A stretch of DNA of 20,145 bases from a virus: positions 1 through 20,145 of the IMG/VR virus record IMGVR_UViG_3300032323_000110; one strand, 5' to 3'. The translations under genes and the position numbers were made by a program. How positions within the stretch are numbered: position 1 is the first letter of the stretch; each line of letters starts with the position of its first letter. Below, in pieces: positions 1 through 11,953 of this stretch. Under the pieces are notes generated by a model that was not told the origin of the DNA, searched no databases, and was given only the letters and a program-made list of their open reading frames with translations.

Positions 1-1470
1 GTGTCGGATTCTAAAGAAGGATGGGCAAAATCGCTTAGACAGCTCATTGCTCTTTTATATTCTGGTGAAATTCCAAAGTACGATGTATCCAAAGTTAGAC
101 CTGCAGGAGCTAGACTTAAGACCTTTGGTGGAAGAGCGTCAGGACCTGGACCTTTGGAAGAGCTTTATAAGTTCTGTATCGCCAAGTTCAAAGGGGCAGC
201 TGGTCGTCGCTTATCATCATTGGAATGCCATGATATTCTCTGCAAAATCGGGGAAGTTGTTGTTGTGGGCGGAGTACGACGCAGTGCAATGATTTCATTG
301 TCTGACTTGTCTGATGACAAGATGGCTCATGCTAAGGCTGGTAATTGGTGGGATGGTCAAGGACAACGAGCATTGGCTAACAACTCTGCTGTCTACGAAG
401 AGAAGCCGTACATTGGTCAGTTCATGCGTGAATGGTCATCTATCTATGAGTCGCATTCAGGAGAGCGTGGAATCTTTAGTCGTGCTGCATCGCAGAAACA
501 GGCTGCAAAGAACGGTAGACGAGATGCAACCTATGCGTATGGCACGAATCCGTGCAGTGAGATAATTTTGCGTCCTTATCAGTTCTGTAATCTATCTAGC
601 TGTATTGTTCGTAGCGATGATGATATGGATTCTTTGGAGCGTAAGATTCGTATTGCGTCAATTCTTGGTACTTTCCAAGCTTCGCTAACTAACTTCCCAT
701 ACTTGCGTAAGATTTGGCAGAAGAACACCGAAGAAGAAGCACTACTAGGTGTGTCTATGACTGGTATCTGTGATAACTCACTATTGAATAACCCTGATGA
801 TGCTGACTTACCAGCACGATTGGAGAGACTAAAAGATGTTGCTGTTACTACTAACGCTGAGTTCGCTTCTGCTATTGGTATTAATCAGTCTGTGGCGGTT
901 ACAGCAGTTAAGCCTGAAGGGACTGTTTCTCAACTCTGTTCAACTGCGAGTGGTATTCATCCTCAGCATAGTAAATACTATATTCGTCGTGTTAGAGCTG
1001 ATAACAAAGACCCACTAACACAGTTCATGATTCAGTCTGGATTCGTTGCAGAACCTTGCGTGATGAAGCCTGATTCAACAACAGTATTTAGTTTCCCTGT
1101 TGCTGTTGCTGATGGTGCTCTATTGCGTGATGATTTGTCTGCACTACAACACTTGAAGTTATGGTTGTTGTTCCAGAGACACTACTGTGAACACAAACCT
1201 TCTGTGACTATCTCTGTTAAAGAAAACGAATGGATGGATGTCGGAGCATGGGTTTACAAGCACTTTGATGAAGTTACTGGTGTGTCGTTCTTGCCGATGG
1301 ATGGTGGAACTTACAAACAAGCTCCTTACTCTGAGTGTACCGAAGAAGAGTATAAGGACTTGTTTAACAAAGTACCTAAAGATATTGACTGGAACAATTT
1401 TGTTGAATACACAGACAATGTGGAAGGTGCTCAACAGTTAGCTTGTACCGCAGGAGCTTGTGAGATTTGA
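1..1470 (+). CDS. Ribonucleoside-triphosphate reductase, class II monomeric (B12-dependent), 3' part
   Basis: Reduces ribonucleotides to deoxyribonucleotides for phage DNA synthesis, using adenosylcobalamin to make the thiyl radical. The 489 codons match the C-terminal two thirds of the Lactobacillus leichmannii-type enzyme. Seen: the active-site motif NPCSE (N183, C185, E187); a second cysteine C196 exactly 11 residues later, matching the C408/C419 pair of that enzyme; KPEGTVSQL near residue 303; a SGIHP then YYIRRVR block; and a terminal C482-x4-C487 pair that would pass electrons from thioredoxin. The reading frame is open at base 1, and the GTG there is probably internal, because family members continue upstream with the effector-binding region and the other redox cysteine. 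It is on the opposite strand to the structural genes. Family assignment is firm; the N-terminus is outside the window. Confidence 0.9.
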   Translation: MSDSKEGWAKSLRQLIALLYSGEIPKYDVSKVRPAGARLKTFGGRASGPGPLEELYKFCIAKFKGAAGRRLSSLECHDILCKIGEVVVVGGVRRSAMISLSDLSDDKMAHAKAGNWWDGQGQRALANNSAVYEEKPYIGQFMREWSSIYESHSGERGIFSRAASQKQAAKNGRRDATYAYGTNPCSEIILRPYQFCNLSSCIVRSDDDMDSLERKIRIASILGTFQASLTNFPYLRKIWQKNTEEEALLGVSMTGICDNSLLNNPDDADLPARLERLKDVAVTTNAEFASAIGINQSVAVTAVKPEGTVSQLCSTASGIHPQHSKYYIRRVRADNKDPLTQFMIQSGFVAEPCVMKPDSTTVFSFPVAVADGALLRDDLSALQHLKLWLLFQRHYCEHKPSVTISVKENEWMDVGAWVYKHFDEVTGVSFLPMDGGTYKQAPYSECTEEEYKDLFNKVPKDIDWNNFVEYTDNVEGAQQLACTAGACEI

Positions 1471-1829
1471 AAACTTGTTCTAAATGTAATCAGCTTAAAG
1501 AACTAAGCGAGTTTCAAAACGATGTACGACATCAAGATTCTAAGCAGTCTTGGTGTCGTCAGTGCGGCTACGCTGCTAAAAAGGTAAAAAGAGCAGAGAA
1601 CAAAAGAAAGGCTGTTGATTATCTAGGAGGAAAATGTCAAATGTGCGGAATAACTTCTGAATGTTTAGATATTTTTGATTTCCACCACAGAAATCCTCTT
1701 GAAAAAGAATCTAGCTTAAATGTTTTAGTGAATAAAAGCTGGGCTCATATTCAACCAGAGCTTGATAAGTGTGATTTACTTTGCTCTAATTGCCATAAAA
1801 TAACCCATTGGCGATTGAGAAATAAATAG
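1467..1829 (+). CDS. HNH homing-type endonuclease, zinc-binding
   Basis: A 120-residue HNH nuclease of the small free-standing phage type. The N-terminus has two CxxC knuckles (C4/C7 and C30/C33). The nuclease core has C57/C60, the histidine pair H73-H74 in DFHHR, and C106/C109 with H110 in LCSNCH, a beta-beta-alpha-metal fold. The start is TTG at 1467, overlapping the TGA of the reductase (TTGA), with GGAG about 10 bases upstream. The protein then begins MKTCSKC, as relatives do, so this non-ATG start is credible. Codon use looks more A-rich than in the reductase (AGA, AAA), which suggests separate acquisition. It probably cuts related genomes lacking the insertion; the target site is not visible. 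Confidence 0.85.
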   Translation: MKTCSKCNQLKELSEFQNDVRHQDSKQSWCRQCGYAAKKVKRAENKRKAVDYLGGKCQMCGITSECLDIFDFHHRNPLEKESSLNVLVNKSWAHIQPELDKCDLLCSNCHKITHWRLRNK

Positions 1830-1862: not shown

Positions 1863-1889
1863 GGCAGCCCTTCGGGGCTGTCTTTTTTT
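1863..1889 (+). terminator. Rho-independent terminator, UUCG loop
   Basis: An 8-bp stem (1863-1870 with 1875-1882, one G-U pair) closed by a TTCG loop is followed by seven T residues (1883-1889). It ends the + strand reductase/endonuclease transcript. The T run overlaps the stop codon of the convergent - strand gene. Read on the - strand the hairpin has no trailing T run, so it should be one-directional. A weaker inverted repeat (GTCTC/GAGAC, 1842-1856) sits just before it. Confidence 0.88.
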
Positions 1890-2313
1890 ACACTATTTCT
1901 ATAGAACAGTCTTCAGCTCTTTCAATCATTGGCATGATAAGACCCATAGCGACCTTAGACGAGCCAATCCAGTCACTCTTACCGTCCCAAGTCATTCCAA
2001 CGAGTAAGCAGCCCTCAGTGTTCTTGGAAGAGTTACCGCTGTGTATTCGTATGCCTGTAAACCCAGGGACATTAAGGAGTAAAGGTAATCTAGTCTTAAA
2101 TCTATTGGACATAGTAATACGAACATCGTAGACTCCTTTGGGGATTGCTGTTTTGTCTTGTTCTTTCCAGACTTTGACATCTTGACCTTCTACTTCACGA
2201 TATTTGTCTTCTAAGACATAGCACAGAGGACTTTGACCGTAGTCTGTTACTTCATAAAGCTGTCCTACTGTAAAAGTTTCACCAAAGTGTATTCTTTTCA
2301 GTAACAGTTTCAT
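1888..2313 (-). CDS. DUF5675-like protein, candidate lysis enzyme
   Basis: A 141-residue protein resembling the DUF5675 family: a short beta-rich start, an LED motif near residue 35, AIPKGVYDV (57-65), then GIRIHSGN (87-94) and GC at 101-102. H91 and C102 are the obvious candidate catalytic pair, with a spacing loosely like cysteine-dependent L,D-transpeptidases; that parallel is inference. It is the last gene of the late transcript, coupled to the holin by an ATGA overlap, and no lysozyme, amidase or transglycosylase is seen elsewhere in the window. Location suggests peptidoglycan cleavage at lysis. There is no signal peptide, which fits export through a holin. Family call is moderate, function speculative. 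Confidence 0.6.
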   Translation of the reverse strand: MKLLLKRIHFGETFTVGQLYEVTDYGQSPLCYVLEDKYREVEGQDVKVWKEQDKTAIPKGVYDVRITMSNRFKTRLPLLLNVPGFTGIRIHSGNSSKNTEGCLLVGMTWDGKSDWIGSSKVAMGLIMPMIERAEDCSIEIV

Positions 2314-2702
2314 TTAATCCCTTTAATCTTCTCAAAAGTTCGTAAGCTGCCTAAACCTAACATAGCAAAGACTAGCTCCATAAGGATGTCAGACATCAAT
2401 GCAGGAGGAGTTATTTGTAAGTTGAATGTAGCTACAGCCCACAATAGGATGTTGTATAGCACGAAGTTGTAGAACAGACCGAAGACACAAATCCAACCAA
2501 TCGCTGGTCTCCAGCCTGATTTGAACAAGTTCTCAGACTTAGCTTCTTCCTCATTCACCTTAATCTGTGCAAGAGCTAGTTGAAAGTCTTGGTCTTGAGC
2601 TGCTTTGAACAACTCAGACTGTGCTTTCTCTCTAGCATCTTTGTCAGGAATAACCTTGTCTAAGAGCTTTGCACCTAGTTCAATGATTGCTAGTGGGAGC
2701 AT
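2310..2702 (-). CDS. Holin, three-helix GTA type
   Basis: A 130-residue inner-membrane protein likely to form the lysis pore. The N-terminal half is a charged amphipathic helix (about 15-60). SGWRPAIGWICV (62-73) leads into a long hydrophobic stretch to about residue 92, enough for one or two helices, and a further helix spans about 104-120. It ends with RTFEKIKG. The SGWRP block and the RTFEK tail are hallmarks of the holin superfamily found with gene-transfer agents. ATG overlaps the stop of the upstream ejection-type gene (TAATG), and its own TGA overlaps the next ATG, placing it in a lysis cassette at the end of the late operon. Confidence 0.85.
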   Translation of the reverse strand: MLPLAIIELGAKLLDKVIPDKDAREKAQSELFKAAQDQDFQLALAQIKVNEEEAKSENLFKSGWRPAIGWICVFGLFYNFVLYNILLWAVATFNLQITPPALMSDILMELVFAMLGLGSLRTFEKIKGIK

Positions 2703-8495: not shown

Positions 8496-10097
8496 TTAAA
8501 TCAGTGTCTTTCCACCCTTGAGTCCAAAGTCAATCTTTTGAATAGACAAAGGAGCGTTATTAATATCAGCTTCAAATCCTAGTTGCACTACTTTACCTGC
8601 ACCACCTGCGTTAACTTGAGCACTGTCAAGAGCAATACCGTTAGAGTAAGTAGCGATGTTATATTCACCTGTACCGTACTCAAACACAGATACAGTGTCT
8701 AGCGTTACTACTTGAGTGCTGTAGTTACTGGTGTAATCAAAGCCCCACTTAAACGAGATGGCTTGTGCTGAACCGCCAATAGCAACTAAGTTAATCTTCT
8801 TCATTATCTTAGTCTGTACAGGGCTATCAAAGTCAAAATAGTTTGTGTAATAAGACATACGATAAGTCGCACCGTTGTCTTGATATCCGTTATACTTACC
8901 AATAAAGCCTTGCTTACCAATGTACAACTCTTTAGCTGTTGTCAAGTTAAACGCTGTAGGTTTAATATCTTTCCAGATAGTTACTCTAGCACCGCCATTT
9001 TCTAAGACACCTCTTGTATCAAAGCAGTAAGTAAAACCAGTAGACGGTAATGCTAATAAATAATGAGCATCTGTTGGAAAATAAACAGCCTTGATGTACT
9101 TTAATACTTCAGTGTTTACATTGCTCAGTAGACCGTCACGAACATTCTTAGACACATCTCTAAAAGGCAATGACTTCTCTTGTACAACTCGCTGTAAAGA
9201 CTGTACACCAGTAGCAGACAAGAACAACAAGTCTGTACCGATAGACGCAACAGAATCTCTAGCAATGCAACCAACACCAGTAATTGTGTCTTCTAATGCT
9301 AAAGCTGATGGGTCTACAGGGTTTCTGTAAACAATGATATGACGCTCACAGAATATAATCAAGAAACCGTTATGAGCAGCTAAAGCTACGATAGGGTCAT
9401 TGTTAGGAACAACTTCACTAATGTTTAAGTAACCAGAAGTGCCAGTCTTCCACTCGGTAGGGTCTAACAAGTCACTAAAGTATACTGTCTGTCTATCATT
9501 AGCAATATCTGCAACCCATACACGACCAAAAGCAGTCATCACCACATTAGGTGTAAAGTTAGTAACTGTGTAATTACCAGGCAAGTTAGTGGCAATATCG
9601 CCTAAGCGTTGTAGACCATAAGCACCTGTGTGTGCATGAGCTGTAGAGCCGAGCTTATGATAAACTAATGTAGGATGCCCTGCCTGAGCTAGAATAGCAT
9701 GACCTGAAGGAGCTGCTCCTGTGTCATAAGGCATACCACTAATCTGCCAGTTATCGTCAGTAATGGTGTAAGTTAAGTTAGCAGTATTGTCGCTATTGCG
9801 TACAGCCATTTCAGTAAGTGTTGTAGTACCGCTATAAAGCTTGTTATTAGCAGCGGACAACACCTCATTACCATCGTCTTTAACAACTTGATAAATTGCT
9901 CTAAAGTTGCCTGTTGATGCAGCTGAAGTATTTACTTTAGTCCAGCCTTTACGAGCACCGATACGACCGTACTGGTCAATGACGCAGTTAAAAGCTTCTA
10001 AAGCAAAGCCACTAGACAACTGCACAGAGCTGTCTTGGGTGTTTAAACCGAAGAAGCCTGGAGCTGCAATAGAGCCTGTTAAGAGCTGTTCTGCCAT
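8496..10097 (-). CDS. Tail tubular protein B-like (nozzle)
   Basis: A 533-residue, beta-rich protein that likely forms the tail nozzle beyond the adaptor. The start (GSIAAPGFFGLNTQDSSVQL, then NCVIDQYGRIGARKGW) is typical of podovirus tail tubular B-type proteins, and repeated strand patterns fit a propeller fold. It directly follows the adaptor gene (stop TAA abuts ATG), matching the gp11-gp12 order of T7. At 533 residues it is shorter than T7 gp12 (about 790). GGAGA lies about 9 bases before the ATG, inside the previous gene. Assignment rests on pattern and order. Confidence 0.75.
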   Translation of the reverse strand: MAEQLLTGSIAAPGFFGLNTQDSSVQLSSGFALEAFNCVIDQYGRIGARKGWTKVNTSAASTGNFRAIYQVVKDDGNEVLSAANNKLYSGTTTLTEMAVRNSDNTANLTYTITDDNWQISGMPYDTGAAPSGHAILAQAGHPTLVYHKLGSTAHAHTGAYGLQRLGDIATNLPGNYTVTNFTPNVVMTAFGRVWVADIANDRQTVYFSDLLDPTEWKTGTSGYLNISEVVPNNDPIVALAAHNGFLIIFCERHIIVYRNPVDPSALALEDTITGVGCIARDSVASIGTDLLFLSATGVQSLQRVVQEKSLPFRDVSKNVRDGLLSNVNTEVLKYIKAVYFPTDAHYLLALPSTGFTYCFDTRGVLENGGARVTIWKDIKPTAFNLTTAKELYIGKQGFIGKYNGYQDNGATYRMSYYTNYFDFDSPVQTKIMKKINLVAIGGSAQAISFKWGFDYTSNYSTQVVTLDTVSVFEYGTGEYNIATYSNGIALDSAQVNAGGAGKVVQLGFEADINNAPLSIQKIDFGLKGGKTLI

Positions 10098-11396: not shown

Positions 11397-11741
11397 TTAG
11401 CTTCCGTTCTGATAACTAGTGTTTTGATGAATTTCTACAGTAAAGATTACTGAAAATGTACTACCTGATTCAGGTGTCACTCTTAACTCGTCATATTCAT
11501 CAAATACCATACGACCATCCGAGAACTGAATATAATCTCCAGCACCTACAGACTTACCGCCAGCAATAACAATATCATCTTCAGCAGAAGAGTCATACCA
11601 ATCAGCAGCAATAGATTTAGAACTGCCACCAGCATTAGACAAAAACAACAATGTAGCAATAGCTTTACAGCCTTTCGGCACTGTATAAACAGTATTGCTG
11701 ACACCTGCAGTTAAGTTTAGACCTACTGTTAGTTCTCTCAT
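11397..11741 (-). CDS. Beta-rich virion-type protein, 114 aa
   Basis: A 114-residue protein with alternating hydrophobic strands and no helix-rich region. It contains TVYTVPKGCKAIATLLFLSN (18-37), VGAGDYIQFSDG (65-76) and ELRVTPESGSTFSVIFTVEI (85-104). The pattern fits a small beta-sandwich such as a minor virion or decoration protein, and similar phage proteins have no known function. The ATG overlaps the stop of the upstream membrane protein gene (ATGA); the Shine-Dalgarno is weak. It sits between the fibre genes and the basic trio. Confidence 0.6.
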   Translation of the reverse strand: MRELTVGLNLTAGVSNTVYTVPKGCKAIATLLFLSNAGGSSKSIAADWYDSSAEDDIVIAGGKSVGAGDYIQFSDGRMVFDEYDELRVTPESGSTFSVIFTVEIHQNTSYQNGS

Positions 11742-11953
11742 TTAAGTGTCCAATGTGAGCCAATAAATGTAACAATACCGCCAACAATAGAAGCTACTGT
11801 CATACCCATCCAGAAGCCACCTTTAGATTTGTTAGCAAGTTCTAGCAACTCTTCCATACCTAGTTCTAGCTTGTCTATCTTCTTTTCCATAGCTTCAACT
11901 TGAGCTACCAGCTTACCGTATTTGTAAGGGTCTATTTGATTGTTTTCCATCAT
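11738..11953 (-). CDS. Coiled-coil protein with C-terminal membrane helix
   Basis: A 71-residue protein (70 if the second of two adjacent ATG codons is used). Residues 15-45 form a heptad-like charged helix (LVAQVEAMEKKIDKLELGME). After KSKGG there is one hydrophobic helix (FWMGMTVASIVGGIVTFIGS, about 47-66) and a short polar end. The plan resembles hemolysin XhlA-type or anti-holin proteins, which have a cytoplasmic coiled coil and one membrane helix. It lies away from the main holin, within the fibre region, and no clear Shine-Dalgarno is seen. A role in lysis timing is possible but unproven. Confidence 0.6.
   Translation of the reverse strand: MMENNQIDPYKYGKLVAQVEAMEKKIDKLELGMEELLELANKSKGGFWMGMTVASIVGGIVTFIGSHWTLK

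What the first reader, a model, noticed from the sequence alone, without database searches (positions are those of the whole stretch)
1888..2702. Lysis cassette without a recognisable endolysin; DUF5675-like protein is the candidate
The last two late genes are a GTA-type holin and, overlapping it by ATGA, a DUF5675-like protein with candidate catalytic H91 and C102. No lysozyme, amidase, peptidase or transglycosylase is seen in the 20 kb. If no endolysin exists elsewhere in the genome, this family may be an unassigned phage peptidoglycan hydrolase.
Basis: partly seen in the sequence, partly recalled or inferred. Interest (0 to 1): 0.55.

Follow-up and report, generated by a model that had tools for sequence, protein, structure and literature searches.

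The report
Phage lysis enzyme hidden as DUF5675
A small phage protein family listed as 'unknown function' most probably is the enzyme that breaks the bacterial wall at the end of infection, built on a fold that cells normally use to cross-link that wall.

Summary
Window 1888-2313(-) is a DUF5675 protein (Pfam E 6e-26) overlapping by ATGA a GTA-type holin at 2310-2702(-). H91 and C102 are invariant in 86 of 86 family members compared. The AlphaFold2 model (pLDDT 95.9) resembles L,D-transpeptidase/YkuD-fold enzymes (best Z 9.8).

Three tests say DUF5675 is the endolysin. (1) Beside the same holin, 66 loci carry DUF5675 (11), a known endolysin (35) or neither (20), never both; a relative has an M15 peptidase in the same place. 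(2) Elsewhere DUF5675 stands between holin-like genes and Rz/Rz1-like spanins, e.g. phage MW202455. (3) Of 38 DUF5675 records of 30 kb or more, 31 match none of nine lysin families searched (one search uninformative); 7 match one.

The window is a 20-kb fragment, so its missing half is untested; three relatives of 37-38 kb showed no lysin among the Pfam families displayed. Activity and cleaved bond are inferred. crAss-like phage records already label relatives 'L,D-carboxypeptidase/transpeptidase', one beside 'lysis regulatory protein/holin'; the new part is the family-wide assignment, probably a new endolysin class.

The parts
1888..2313 (-). DUF5675 protein (141 aa), proposed endolysin with an L,D-transpeptidase-like fold
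   Evidence: Pfam PF18925 E 6.4e-26; PHROG 1501 'unknown function'; AF2 pLDDT 95.9; VIA-align Z 9.8 to Pgp2
1996..2049 (-). motif R89-I-H91-x-G-N-x4-T99-x-G-C102-x-x-x-G106; H91 codon 2041-2043, C102 codon 2008-2010
   Evidence: H91, G93, G101, C102 and G106 invariant in 86 of 86; His-Cys spacing 11 in 86 of 86
2310..2702 (-). holin, GTA_holin_3TM (130 aa), ATGA overlap with the DUF5675 gene
   Evidence: Pfam PF11351 E 3.5e-20; PHROG 3427 holin E 3.2e-32
2310..2313 (-). ATGA stop/start overlap of holin and DUF5675 genes
   Evidence: a 4-nt overlap is seen in many close relatives listed (e.g. L002, L004, L008, L012-L014, L034)
1..1470 (+). ribonucleotide reductase (class II) C-terminal part, convergent with the lysis pair; flank used in the replacement test
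   Evidence: Pfam RNR hits; 70.6% identical to the RNR of L154, which has an M15 peptidase in the DUF5675 place
11738..11953 (-). 71-aa protein, coiled coil plus C-terminal membrane segment (XhlA-like by eye), possible accessory lysis gene
   Evidence: sequence; homologue about 0.8 kb before the holin in G001; similar-looking ORFs next to holin and DUF5675 in L076 and L123 (by eye); PHROG 937 'hemolysin' only at E 0.09
8496..10097 (-). tail/head-closure protein; its G001 homologue carries a PHROG label 'amidase' (rival lysin considered)
   Evidence: G001 homologue: phrog_5107 'amidase' E 1.8e-29, but also Hc3 head closure 1.8e-11 and virion structural 1.6e-17; a PDB profile search gave only two weak AcrIIA6 matches, no amidase

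Best explanation
The two genes are a holin/endolysin pair, and DUF5675 is the endolysin. Late in infection the 3-TM holin opens the inner membrane. The 141-aa DUF5675 protein, which has no membrane segment, passes through and attacks peptidoglycan. From fold and motif, C102 with H91 would form an acyl-enzyme on the L-centre carbonyl of residue 3 (meso-DAP) of the stem peptide and resolve it with water, cutting cross-links as an L,D-endopeptidase (or L,D-carboxypeptidase). Shown here: gene pair, predicted fold, invariant residues, endolysin-slot occupancy in relatives. Inferred: passage through the holin, wall cleavage, the bond cut.
For: Fold: AF2 pLDDT 95.9, pTM 0.89. VIA-align against the PDB: of 27 rows, 24 are L,D-transpeptidase/YkuD-fold entries at Z 6.1-9.8 (about 11 enzymes, half of the rows LdtMt2), led by Pgp2, with Bd1075, Csd6 and DpaA (by title, or family recalled); one at Z 7.0 (4xxt) is a fused peptidoglycan protein; two are a kinase at Z about 2. 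H91 and C102 invariant in 86 of 86. No membrane segment by hydropathy in 86 of 86. Slot: of 66 holin loci, 11 DUF5675, 35 a known endolysin (GH24 25, M15 5, GH108 3, M23 2), 20 neither, 0 both within three same-strand genes (Pfam of 10 of the 12 representatives). L154 shares the RNR (70.6% aa) and holin (49%) with the window and has Peptidase_M15_3 right behind the holin. Cassettes: MW202455 has TM ORF - DUF5675 - Rz-like - Rz1-like, overlaps of 17, 4 and 4 nt (PHROG spanin matches weak); L078 DUF5675 - Rz-like spanin, E 4e-18; L054 DUF5675 - Rz-like - Rz1-like (weak matches); Microcystis phage L223 DUF5675 - Rz-like by eye. Upstream small TM ORF at 51 of 85 DUF5675 genes against 26 of 374 control ORFs; downstream ORF with N-terminal TM 27 of 85 against 23 of 363 (Fisher p 7e-26 and 3e-9; after collapsing at 70% identity 20 of 39 and 12 of 39, p 2e-11 and 2e-5). 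No match to nine searched lysin families in 31 of 38 records. The pair sits at two places in related genomes but stays together.
Against: No activity data. No sequence link to L,D-transpeptidases: no PF03734 hit, hhalign against E. coli Ldts not significant (P 0.098, though its best piece puts TEGC on SHGC; a deeper profile aligned elsewhere), no meaningful PDB sequence match, no Foldseek PDB hit with E <= 0.001. The canonical HG(S/T) and Cys+2 Arg are absent. 7 of 38 records hold another lysin domain: GH108 in G016, SLT in W01, G036 and G030, NLPC_P60 in G012, W03 and G032; MW202455 also annotates a 'permuted papain-like amidase', and phage crAss001, after which some relatives are labelled, a 'glycoside hydrolase/peptidoglycan hydrolase' (47 kb of 102.7 kb viewed). 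In MW202697 the annotated GTA-type holin is about 20 kb away from DUF5675, which follows a 68-aa TM ORF instead. In Pseudomonas phage Cygsa01 the gene follows the portal gene and in Curvibacter phage PCA1 it stands before head genes, without annotated lysis neighbours. 34 of 85 DUF5675 genes lack a detected small TM ORF directly upstream. The G001 homologue of the window tail protein bears a PHROG label 'amidase'. 20 of 66 holin loci show no lysin of the tested kinds within 3 genes.
Confidence: 0.8

Rival explanations
1. DUF5675 is a DpaA-like amidase that cuts outer-membrane proteins or lipoproteins off the wall (an auxiliary lysis function), and the true endolysin is another, unrecognised protein.
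For: DpaA is among the fold matches (Z 8.1). DpaA, like DUF5675, has a short His-Cys spacing (8 and 11 against 16 in LdtB) and no Arg at Cys+2; PMC12729407 (passages) says that DpaA lacks an arginine conserved in transpeptidases, without saying in those passages which one.
Against: It sits in the endolysin slot and is never found with a known endolysin of the four tested kinds beside the same holin; spanin-like genes follow it as they follow endolysins; several hosts (Bacteroides, Microcystis) are not expected to have Braun's lipoprotein (recalled).
Confidence: 0.1
2. The endolysin is a virion-associated domain, e.g. the tail protein 8496-10097 whose G001 homologue hits PHROG 'amidase', or a large internal virion protein; DUF5675 does something else at lysis.
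For: phrog_5107 'amidase' 1.8e-29 in the G001 homologue; weak phrog_342 'internal virion protein with endolysin domain' match in another G001 protein, 3.6e-5; SLT domains in three other records.
Against: The 'amidase' protein also matches head closure and virion structural families, the Pfam lists show no lysin family for the set that holds it, and a profile PDB search finds no amidase. The phrog_342 match covers profile positions 294-429 of 1235 only. No SLT in the window record.
Confidence: 0.06
3. DUF5675 is an active L,D-transpeptidase that changes the wall (amino-acid exchange or 3-3 cross-links), e.g. to stabilise the cell until lysis or block superinfection.
For: Same fold as transpeptidases; public label 'L,D-carboxypeptidase/transpeptidase'.
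Against: Endolysin-slot replacement by GH24, M15, GH108 and M23 enzymes; lacks the HG(S/T) and Cys+2 Arg of the transpeptidase motif.
Confidence: 0.03
4. The lysis cassette is real but the DUF5675 gene is a passenger without catalytic role.
For: No biochemical data; copies outside visible lysis cassettes.
Against: 86 of 86 keep His and Cys; repeated association with different holin-like and spanin-like genes.
Confidence: 0.01

Closest known systems
YkuD-fold L,D-transpeptidases, L,D-carboxypeptidases and DpaA (Pfam PF03734 and relatives; PDB 6xj7 Pgp2, 4xzz Csd6, 7o21 Bd1075, 8ikr DpaA, 6iyv LdtMt2)
   Same: Predicted fold over the whole protein (Z 8.0-9.8 for these five); an invariant His before a (S/T)xGC cysteine; the same class of substrate is likely.
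   Different: No significant sequence similarity; H-x-G-N instead of HG(S/T); His-Cys spacing 11; Leu or Ile instead of Arg at Cys+2; no hydrophobic N-terminal segment found; next to holins and spanins.
crAss-like phage 'L,D-carboxypeptidase/transpeptidase' genes (e.g. cr106_1 gp_13207, annotated after crAss001)
   Same: Homologous by tblastn; in cr106_1 preceded by 'lysis regulatory protein/holin'.
   Different: Those are record labels; I found no paper that tests them or links them to DUF5675 as a family.
Canonical endolysins: GH24 lysozyme, Peptidase M15, GH108, M23
   Same: Occupy the place beside the same holin family.
   Different: Unrelated folds and bonds cut (recalled).
Holin GTA_holin_3TM (PF11351)
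   Same: The window's holin is a member.
   Different: Nothing unusual seen.

Membership tests
Pfam DUF5675 (PF18925) | profile score over the curated cut-off (26.7 bits) | tested here: met
   90.9 bits, residues 5-129 of 141
YkuD L,D-transpeptidase family (PF03734) | YkuD fold | tested here: met
   predicted model only; 24 of 27 VIA-align rows, Z 6.1-9.8, 90-112 residues aligned; Foldseek alone gave no PDB hit with E <= 0.001
YkuD L,D-transpeptidase family (PF03734) | Pfam profile match | tested here: not met
   no PF03734 hit at E <= 0.1
YkuD L,D-transpeptidase family (PF03734) | hydrophobic-G-hydrophobic-HG(S/T)-X10-(S/T)XGC-hydrophobic-R(M/L) motif (as given in PMC12729407) | tested here: not met
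   (S/T)xGC is present, but H-x-G-N replaces HG(S/T), the His-Cys spacing is 11, and Cys+2 is Leu or Ile in 86 of 86
YkuD L,D-transpeptidase family (PF03734) | His and Cys in one active-site pocket | not testable with these tools
   no coordinates returned; VIA gives ranges only
YkuD L,D-transpeptidase family (PF03734) | acts on the meso-DAP L-centre bond | not testable with these tools
   needs purified protein
NlpC/P60 | papain-like fold | tested here: inconclusive
   the VIA list does not decide it
Phage endolysin (functional class) | encoded next to a holin | tested here: met
   window pair; small TM ORF directly upstream in 51 of 85 family members
Phage endolysin (functional class) | only candidate wall lysin outside the virion proteins | tested here: inconclusive
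   window is a fragment; in relatives 31 of 38 records match none of nine searched families; the GH19 search rang in no control; 7 of 38 match one
Phage endolysin (functional class) | interchangeable with known endolysins at the same locus | tested here: met
   0 of 66 holin loci have both; L154 M15 replacement
Phage endolysin (functional class) | degrades peptidoglycan | not testable with these tools
   no bench data
GTA_holin_3TM (PF11351) | profile score over the cut-off (24.8 bits) | tested here: met
   73.2 bits

The most novel reading that the evidence does not exclude
DUF5675 is a distinct class of endolysins with an L,D-transpeptidase fold, L,D-endopeptidases that cut the wall at the bond their cellular cousins use to cross-link it. 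It is shared by tailed phages of many bacteria and by ssDNA microviruses, a group whose non-phiX members lack the known phiX lysis gene.
Probability: 0.6. Interest if true: 0.78.

Novelty: new variant of a known kind. Interest (0 to 1): 0.62.

Why it matters
PF18925 and PHROG 1501 are filed as unknown function. 134 of 50,697 phage records hold a tblastn match to the window protein at E <= 1e-3; at E <= 1 it is 243, chance matches included. Naming the family an endolysin would fill the lysis gap in many phage genomes and add a wall-cutting fold to those tried as antibacterials. It would also give some microviruses a testable lysis enzyme: PMC7062461 (passages) notes that metagenomic gokushoviruses lack the phiX-type lysis gene, though some seem to have acquired peptidases. 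The test is small, because the protein has 141 residues.

Tried and rejected
NlpC/P60 fold: no such row among the VIA matches, so not supported, but not excluded. Sequence route to L,D-transpeptidases: phmmer and profile searches of the PDB (the latter gave only Abraxas proteins at E 0.38 to 2.3) and hhalign against LdtA, B, C and E gave nothing significant; I therefore rest the fold on the model. Checking the 'amidase' tail protein by structure: the model was poor and was not searched. Genome scan for named hosts: only 4 loci, two with a genus name (Hymenobacter, Nitrosovibrio), no host inference for the window. G003 has a different 83-aa ORF before DUF5675, and no holin family among the 25 of 48 families shown; not followed.

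Literature: 10 searches ran. for DUF5675 found 2 papers, no function given in the passages I saw. The listings of the others show no paper on a YkuD-fold endolysin; most listed papers were not opened. The library is open-access PMC only.

Rows dropped and lists cut: 12 of 78 new holin loci had no holin ORF in my ORF set. 11 of the loci printed (L029, L030, L072, L082, L097, L112, L126, L128, L133, L135, L136) had no DUF5675 hit in my ORF set (cause not checked) and are missing from the neighbour table; so is L047. Pooled proteome scans took ORFs of 45 aa or more, 60 of 61 for G001, 64 of 67 for G003, 62 of 64 for G005, and 57 of 63 annotated genes of MW202697 (the shortest left out). Only the first 25 families are shown for G001, G003 and MW202697 (of 38, 48 and 38); for G001 I rescanned 42 leftover proteins and all 8 Pfam families were shown, but of 54 PHROGs only 25. 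The five control records were picked after I had seen endolysin-like neighbours, so they test detection, not frequency. Of the 38 DUF5675 records, 11 were checked with the Pfam model; the rest rest on the tblastn matches that brought them in.

Full report
OBSERVATION. Window 1888-2313(-) encodes 141 aa and 2310-2702(-) 130 aa, joined by ATGA. Pfam gives DUF5675 (E 6.4e-26) and GTA_holin_3TM (E 3.5e-20); PHROGs give 1501 'unknown function' and 3427 'holin'. H91 and C102 are as stated. The record is 20,145 bases long, so the rest of the genome cannot be searched. In the window, family scans of part of its proteins (10 by Pfam; 11 by PHROGs), home-made GH24, GH108, M15 and M23 profiles over 286 frames and Pfam SLT found no lysin.

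FOLD. With 22 sequences (A1) AlphaFold2 gave pLDDT 95.9, pTM 0.89. Foldseek alone found no PDB hit with E <= 0.001, but VIA-align of its top 1000 (996 aligned) put L,D-transpeptidase/YkuD-fold entries in 24 of 27 rows (Z 6.1-9.8; about 11 enzymes, half of the rows LdtMt2): Pgp2 9.8, LdtMt5 8.7, Bd1075 8.4, Csd6 8.3, DpaA 8.1, LdtMt2 8.0, Tlde1a 7.6. One further row (4xxt, Z 7.0) is a fused peptidoglycan protein whose matched domain I did not identify; the two other rows are a kinase at Z about 2. The tool warns that Z under 8 can be a common arrangement; the argument is the uniformity of the rows. That Pgp2, Csd6 and Bd1075 are L,D-carboxypeptidases is recalled. In the viral library 12 matches have E <= 0.001: three are named DUF5675, one L,D-carboxypeptidase/transpeptidase, eight have no name; three of the 12 lie inside proteins of 868, 1210 and 1251 aa. 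A Nodularia phage 'Endolysin' follows at E 0.13, TM 0.60.

RESIDUES. In 86 distinct proteins of 100-220 aa (window included), H91, G93, G101, C102 and G106 are invariant; the His-Cys spacing is 11 in all, and Cys+2 is Leu or Ile in all. A looser set of 89 gave 87 with the full HxG..TxGC motif; the other two were a truncated copy and a Vibrio copy with Ile for Thr that keeps His and Cys. The YkuD motif in PMC12729407 (passages) needs HG(S/T) and Arg at Cys+2; E. coli LdtA, B, C and E have them, DUF5675 does not. DpaA has HGD...SIGC with spacing 8 and Ala at Cys+2. So DUF5675 is fold-related to, but not a member of, the canonical transpeptidase family, and its motif leans towards DpaA, a hydrolase. 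The same review reports L,D-endopeptidase activity for two Clostridioides YkuD enzymes, a precedent for cutting cross-links.

SLOT. Searching with the window holin gave 80 loci, 78 of them new. In 66 of the 78 a holin ORF was found. Within three same-strand genes: DUF5675 11, GH24 25, M15 5, GH108 3, M23 2, none 20, both kinds 0. The known kinds were assigned by similarity to 12 representatives, ten of which Pfam confirmed; the other two were not scanned there. At the +1 position: DUF5675 11, GH24 22, M15 3, GH108 2, none of these 28. L154 is the sharpest case. Its RNR is 70.6% and its holin 49% identical to the window's. Where the window's kin L138 has holin - DUF5675 - small convergent ORF - RNR, L154 has holin - M15 peptidase - homologous small ORF (41%) - RNR; the virion genes on the other side match in size only. 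Many of the 66 are near-relatives, so the counts are not independent events.

CASSETTES. In complete phage MW202455, a stretch mostly left without annotation reads TM ORF 27199-27528, DUF5675 27512-27970, Rz-like 27967-28335, Rz1-like lipoprotein 28332-28610. PHROG spanin matches there are weak (E 0.0014 and 0.0041; the better matches are families of unknown function; the TM ORF matches none). L078 has two TM ORFs, DUF5675 and an Rz-like spanin (E 4e-18). L054 (Helicobacter pullorum prophage) has DUF5675, Rz-like and Rz1-like genes (E 0.0042 and 0.0014, unknown families better). L085 and L084 have DUF5675 followed by an ORF with a lipobox and a C-terminal membrane segment, like a one-piece spanin (my reading; PHROG gives only an unknown family for L085). 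L053 (Bacteroides phage) and L223 (Microcystis phage) end in coiled-coil proteins that look Rz-like by eye (for L053 PHROG gives unknown families). crAss-like cr106_1 reads 'lysis regulatory protein', 'lysis regulatory protein/holin', 'L,D-carboxypeptidase/transpeptidase'. Vibrio phage 1.122.A has DUF5675 and an annotated GTA-type holin as a two-gene unit facing against its neighbours. Against this, in MW202697 the GTA-type holin is about 20 kb away and DUF5675 follows a 68-aa TM ORF, and in Cygsa01 and PCA1 no lysis neighbours are annotated. Overall an upstream small TM ORF stands at 51 of 85 DUF5675 genes against 26 of 374 control ORFs; a downstream ORF with N-terminal TM at 27 of 85 against 23 of 363. 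Collapsing at 70% identity gives 20 of 39 and 12 of 39; at 50%, 3 of 6 and 2 of 6.

OTHER LYSINS. I took 38 DUF5675 records of at least 30 kb (33 viral contigs, 5 phage records; part of those found) and 5 controls with the holin but no DUF5675 beside it. GH24 0 of 38, M15_3 0 (71), GH108 1 (72), Amidase_2 0 (73), SLT 3 (74), M15_4 0 (75), GH19 0 but uninformative (76), NLPC_P60 3 (77), M23 0 (78). Thus 31 of 38 match none; 7 match one. All 5 controls had one (they were chosen knowing their neighbours). Pfam scans of nearly all ORFs of G001, G003 and G005 showed no lysin, with the display limits given under Tried and rejected. MW202697 has SLT in a 413-aa frame near its virion genes, and MW202455 an annotated 'permuted papain-like amidase'. 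In G001, a PHROG labelled 'amidase' matches a 533-aa tail protein that also matches head-closure families; I regard the label as doubtful.

MOBILITY. blastn of the window against G001 (67-84% over shared stretches) shows the holin+DUF5675 pair at 79% identity but at another place, beside the tail adaptor gene (for L002). It moves as one piece.

KNOWN BEFORE. Two papers name DUF5675, without function (passages). [quoted passage not shown] PMC10354031 (passages) names a holin only. Database labels for crAss-like relatives already say L,D-carboxypeptidase/transpeptidase. I found no paper joining DUF5675, this fold and endolysin function (listings). So the new part is the family-wide assignment and the replacement evidence.

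MICROVIRUSES. DUF5675 matches occur in microviruses of about 5-7 kb, His and Cys kept in the six I read. PMC7062461 says that metagenomic gokushoviruses lack the phiX-type lysis gene (passages). PMC11980548 reports a verified wall hydrolase in microvirus Ebor, which its authors match to PDB 6SSC, so probably not a DUF5675 (passages; not tested).

VERDICT. Endolysin: about 0.8. L,D-bond hydrolysis by Cys102/His91: about 0.65, inferred from fold and motif.

Noticed in passing
L049:4829-5242; L226:1501-1926; L227:1465-1857; L228:1378-1830; L229:1396-1833; L230:1204-1800: Microviruses (ssDNA phages of 6.4-7.1 kb) carry DUF5675-like copies with the His and Cys; in Dulem virus 260 (L227) a 71-aa lipoprotein-like ORF follows with a 4-nt overlap.
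   Followed up: partly
L051:27199-28610: Complete phage MW202455 has a lysis cassette (TM ORF, DUF5675, Rz-like, Rz1-like) in a stretch mostly left without annotation.
   Followed up: yes
L084:6381-6863 and L085:6384-6854: ORFs right after DUF5675 with a lipobox at the N-terminus and a membrane segment at the C-terminus, the layout of a one-piece spanin (u-spanin).
   Followed up: partly
window 11738-11953(-): 71-aa coiled-coil plus C-terminal TM protein (XhlA-like by eye); its G001 homologue lies about 0.8 kb before the holin.
   Followed up: partly
L034:14552-16153 (homologue of window 8496-10097): PHROG 5107 is labelled lysis/'amidase', yet its match here is a head-closure/tail protein; the label may be wrong.
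   Followed up: partly
window 1863-1889: Hairpin (agcccttcggggct) followed on the + strand by a T run that overlaps the DUF5675 stop codon; looks like an intrinsic terminator between the convergent operons.
   Followed up: no
window 1467-1829(+): 120-aa ORF overlapping the RNR stop, rich in CxxC pairs with an HH...N motif, HNH-endonuclease-like by eye; no Pfam match above cut-off.
   Followed up: no
BFVD A0A8S5VTR0 (868 aa), A0A7H0XAI4 (1210 aa), A0A1L7N1E2 (1251 aa, Ralstonia phage RP31): The DUF5675 fold also matches inside very large phage proteins (only the RP31 one is named DUF5675), perhaps virion-borne wall enzymes.
   Followed up: no
BFVD A0A482MIV2 (417 aa, Nodularia phage vB_NspS-kac68v162): A protein already labelled 'Endolysin' is a weak fold match of the window protein (E 0.13, probability 0.96, TM 0.60).
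   Followed up: no
L225:5001-5450 (Pseudomonas phage Cygsa01): A DUF5675 gene overlapping the portal gene by 4 nt, outside any annotated lysis cassette; a different role is possible there.
   Followed up: no
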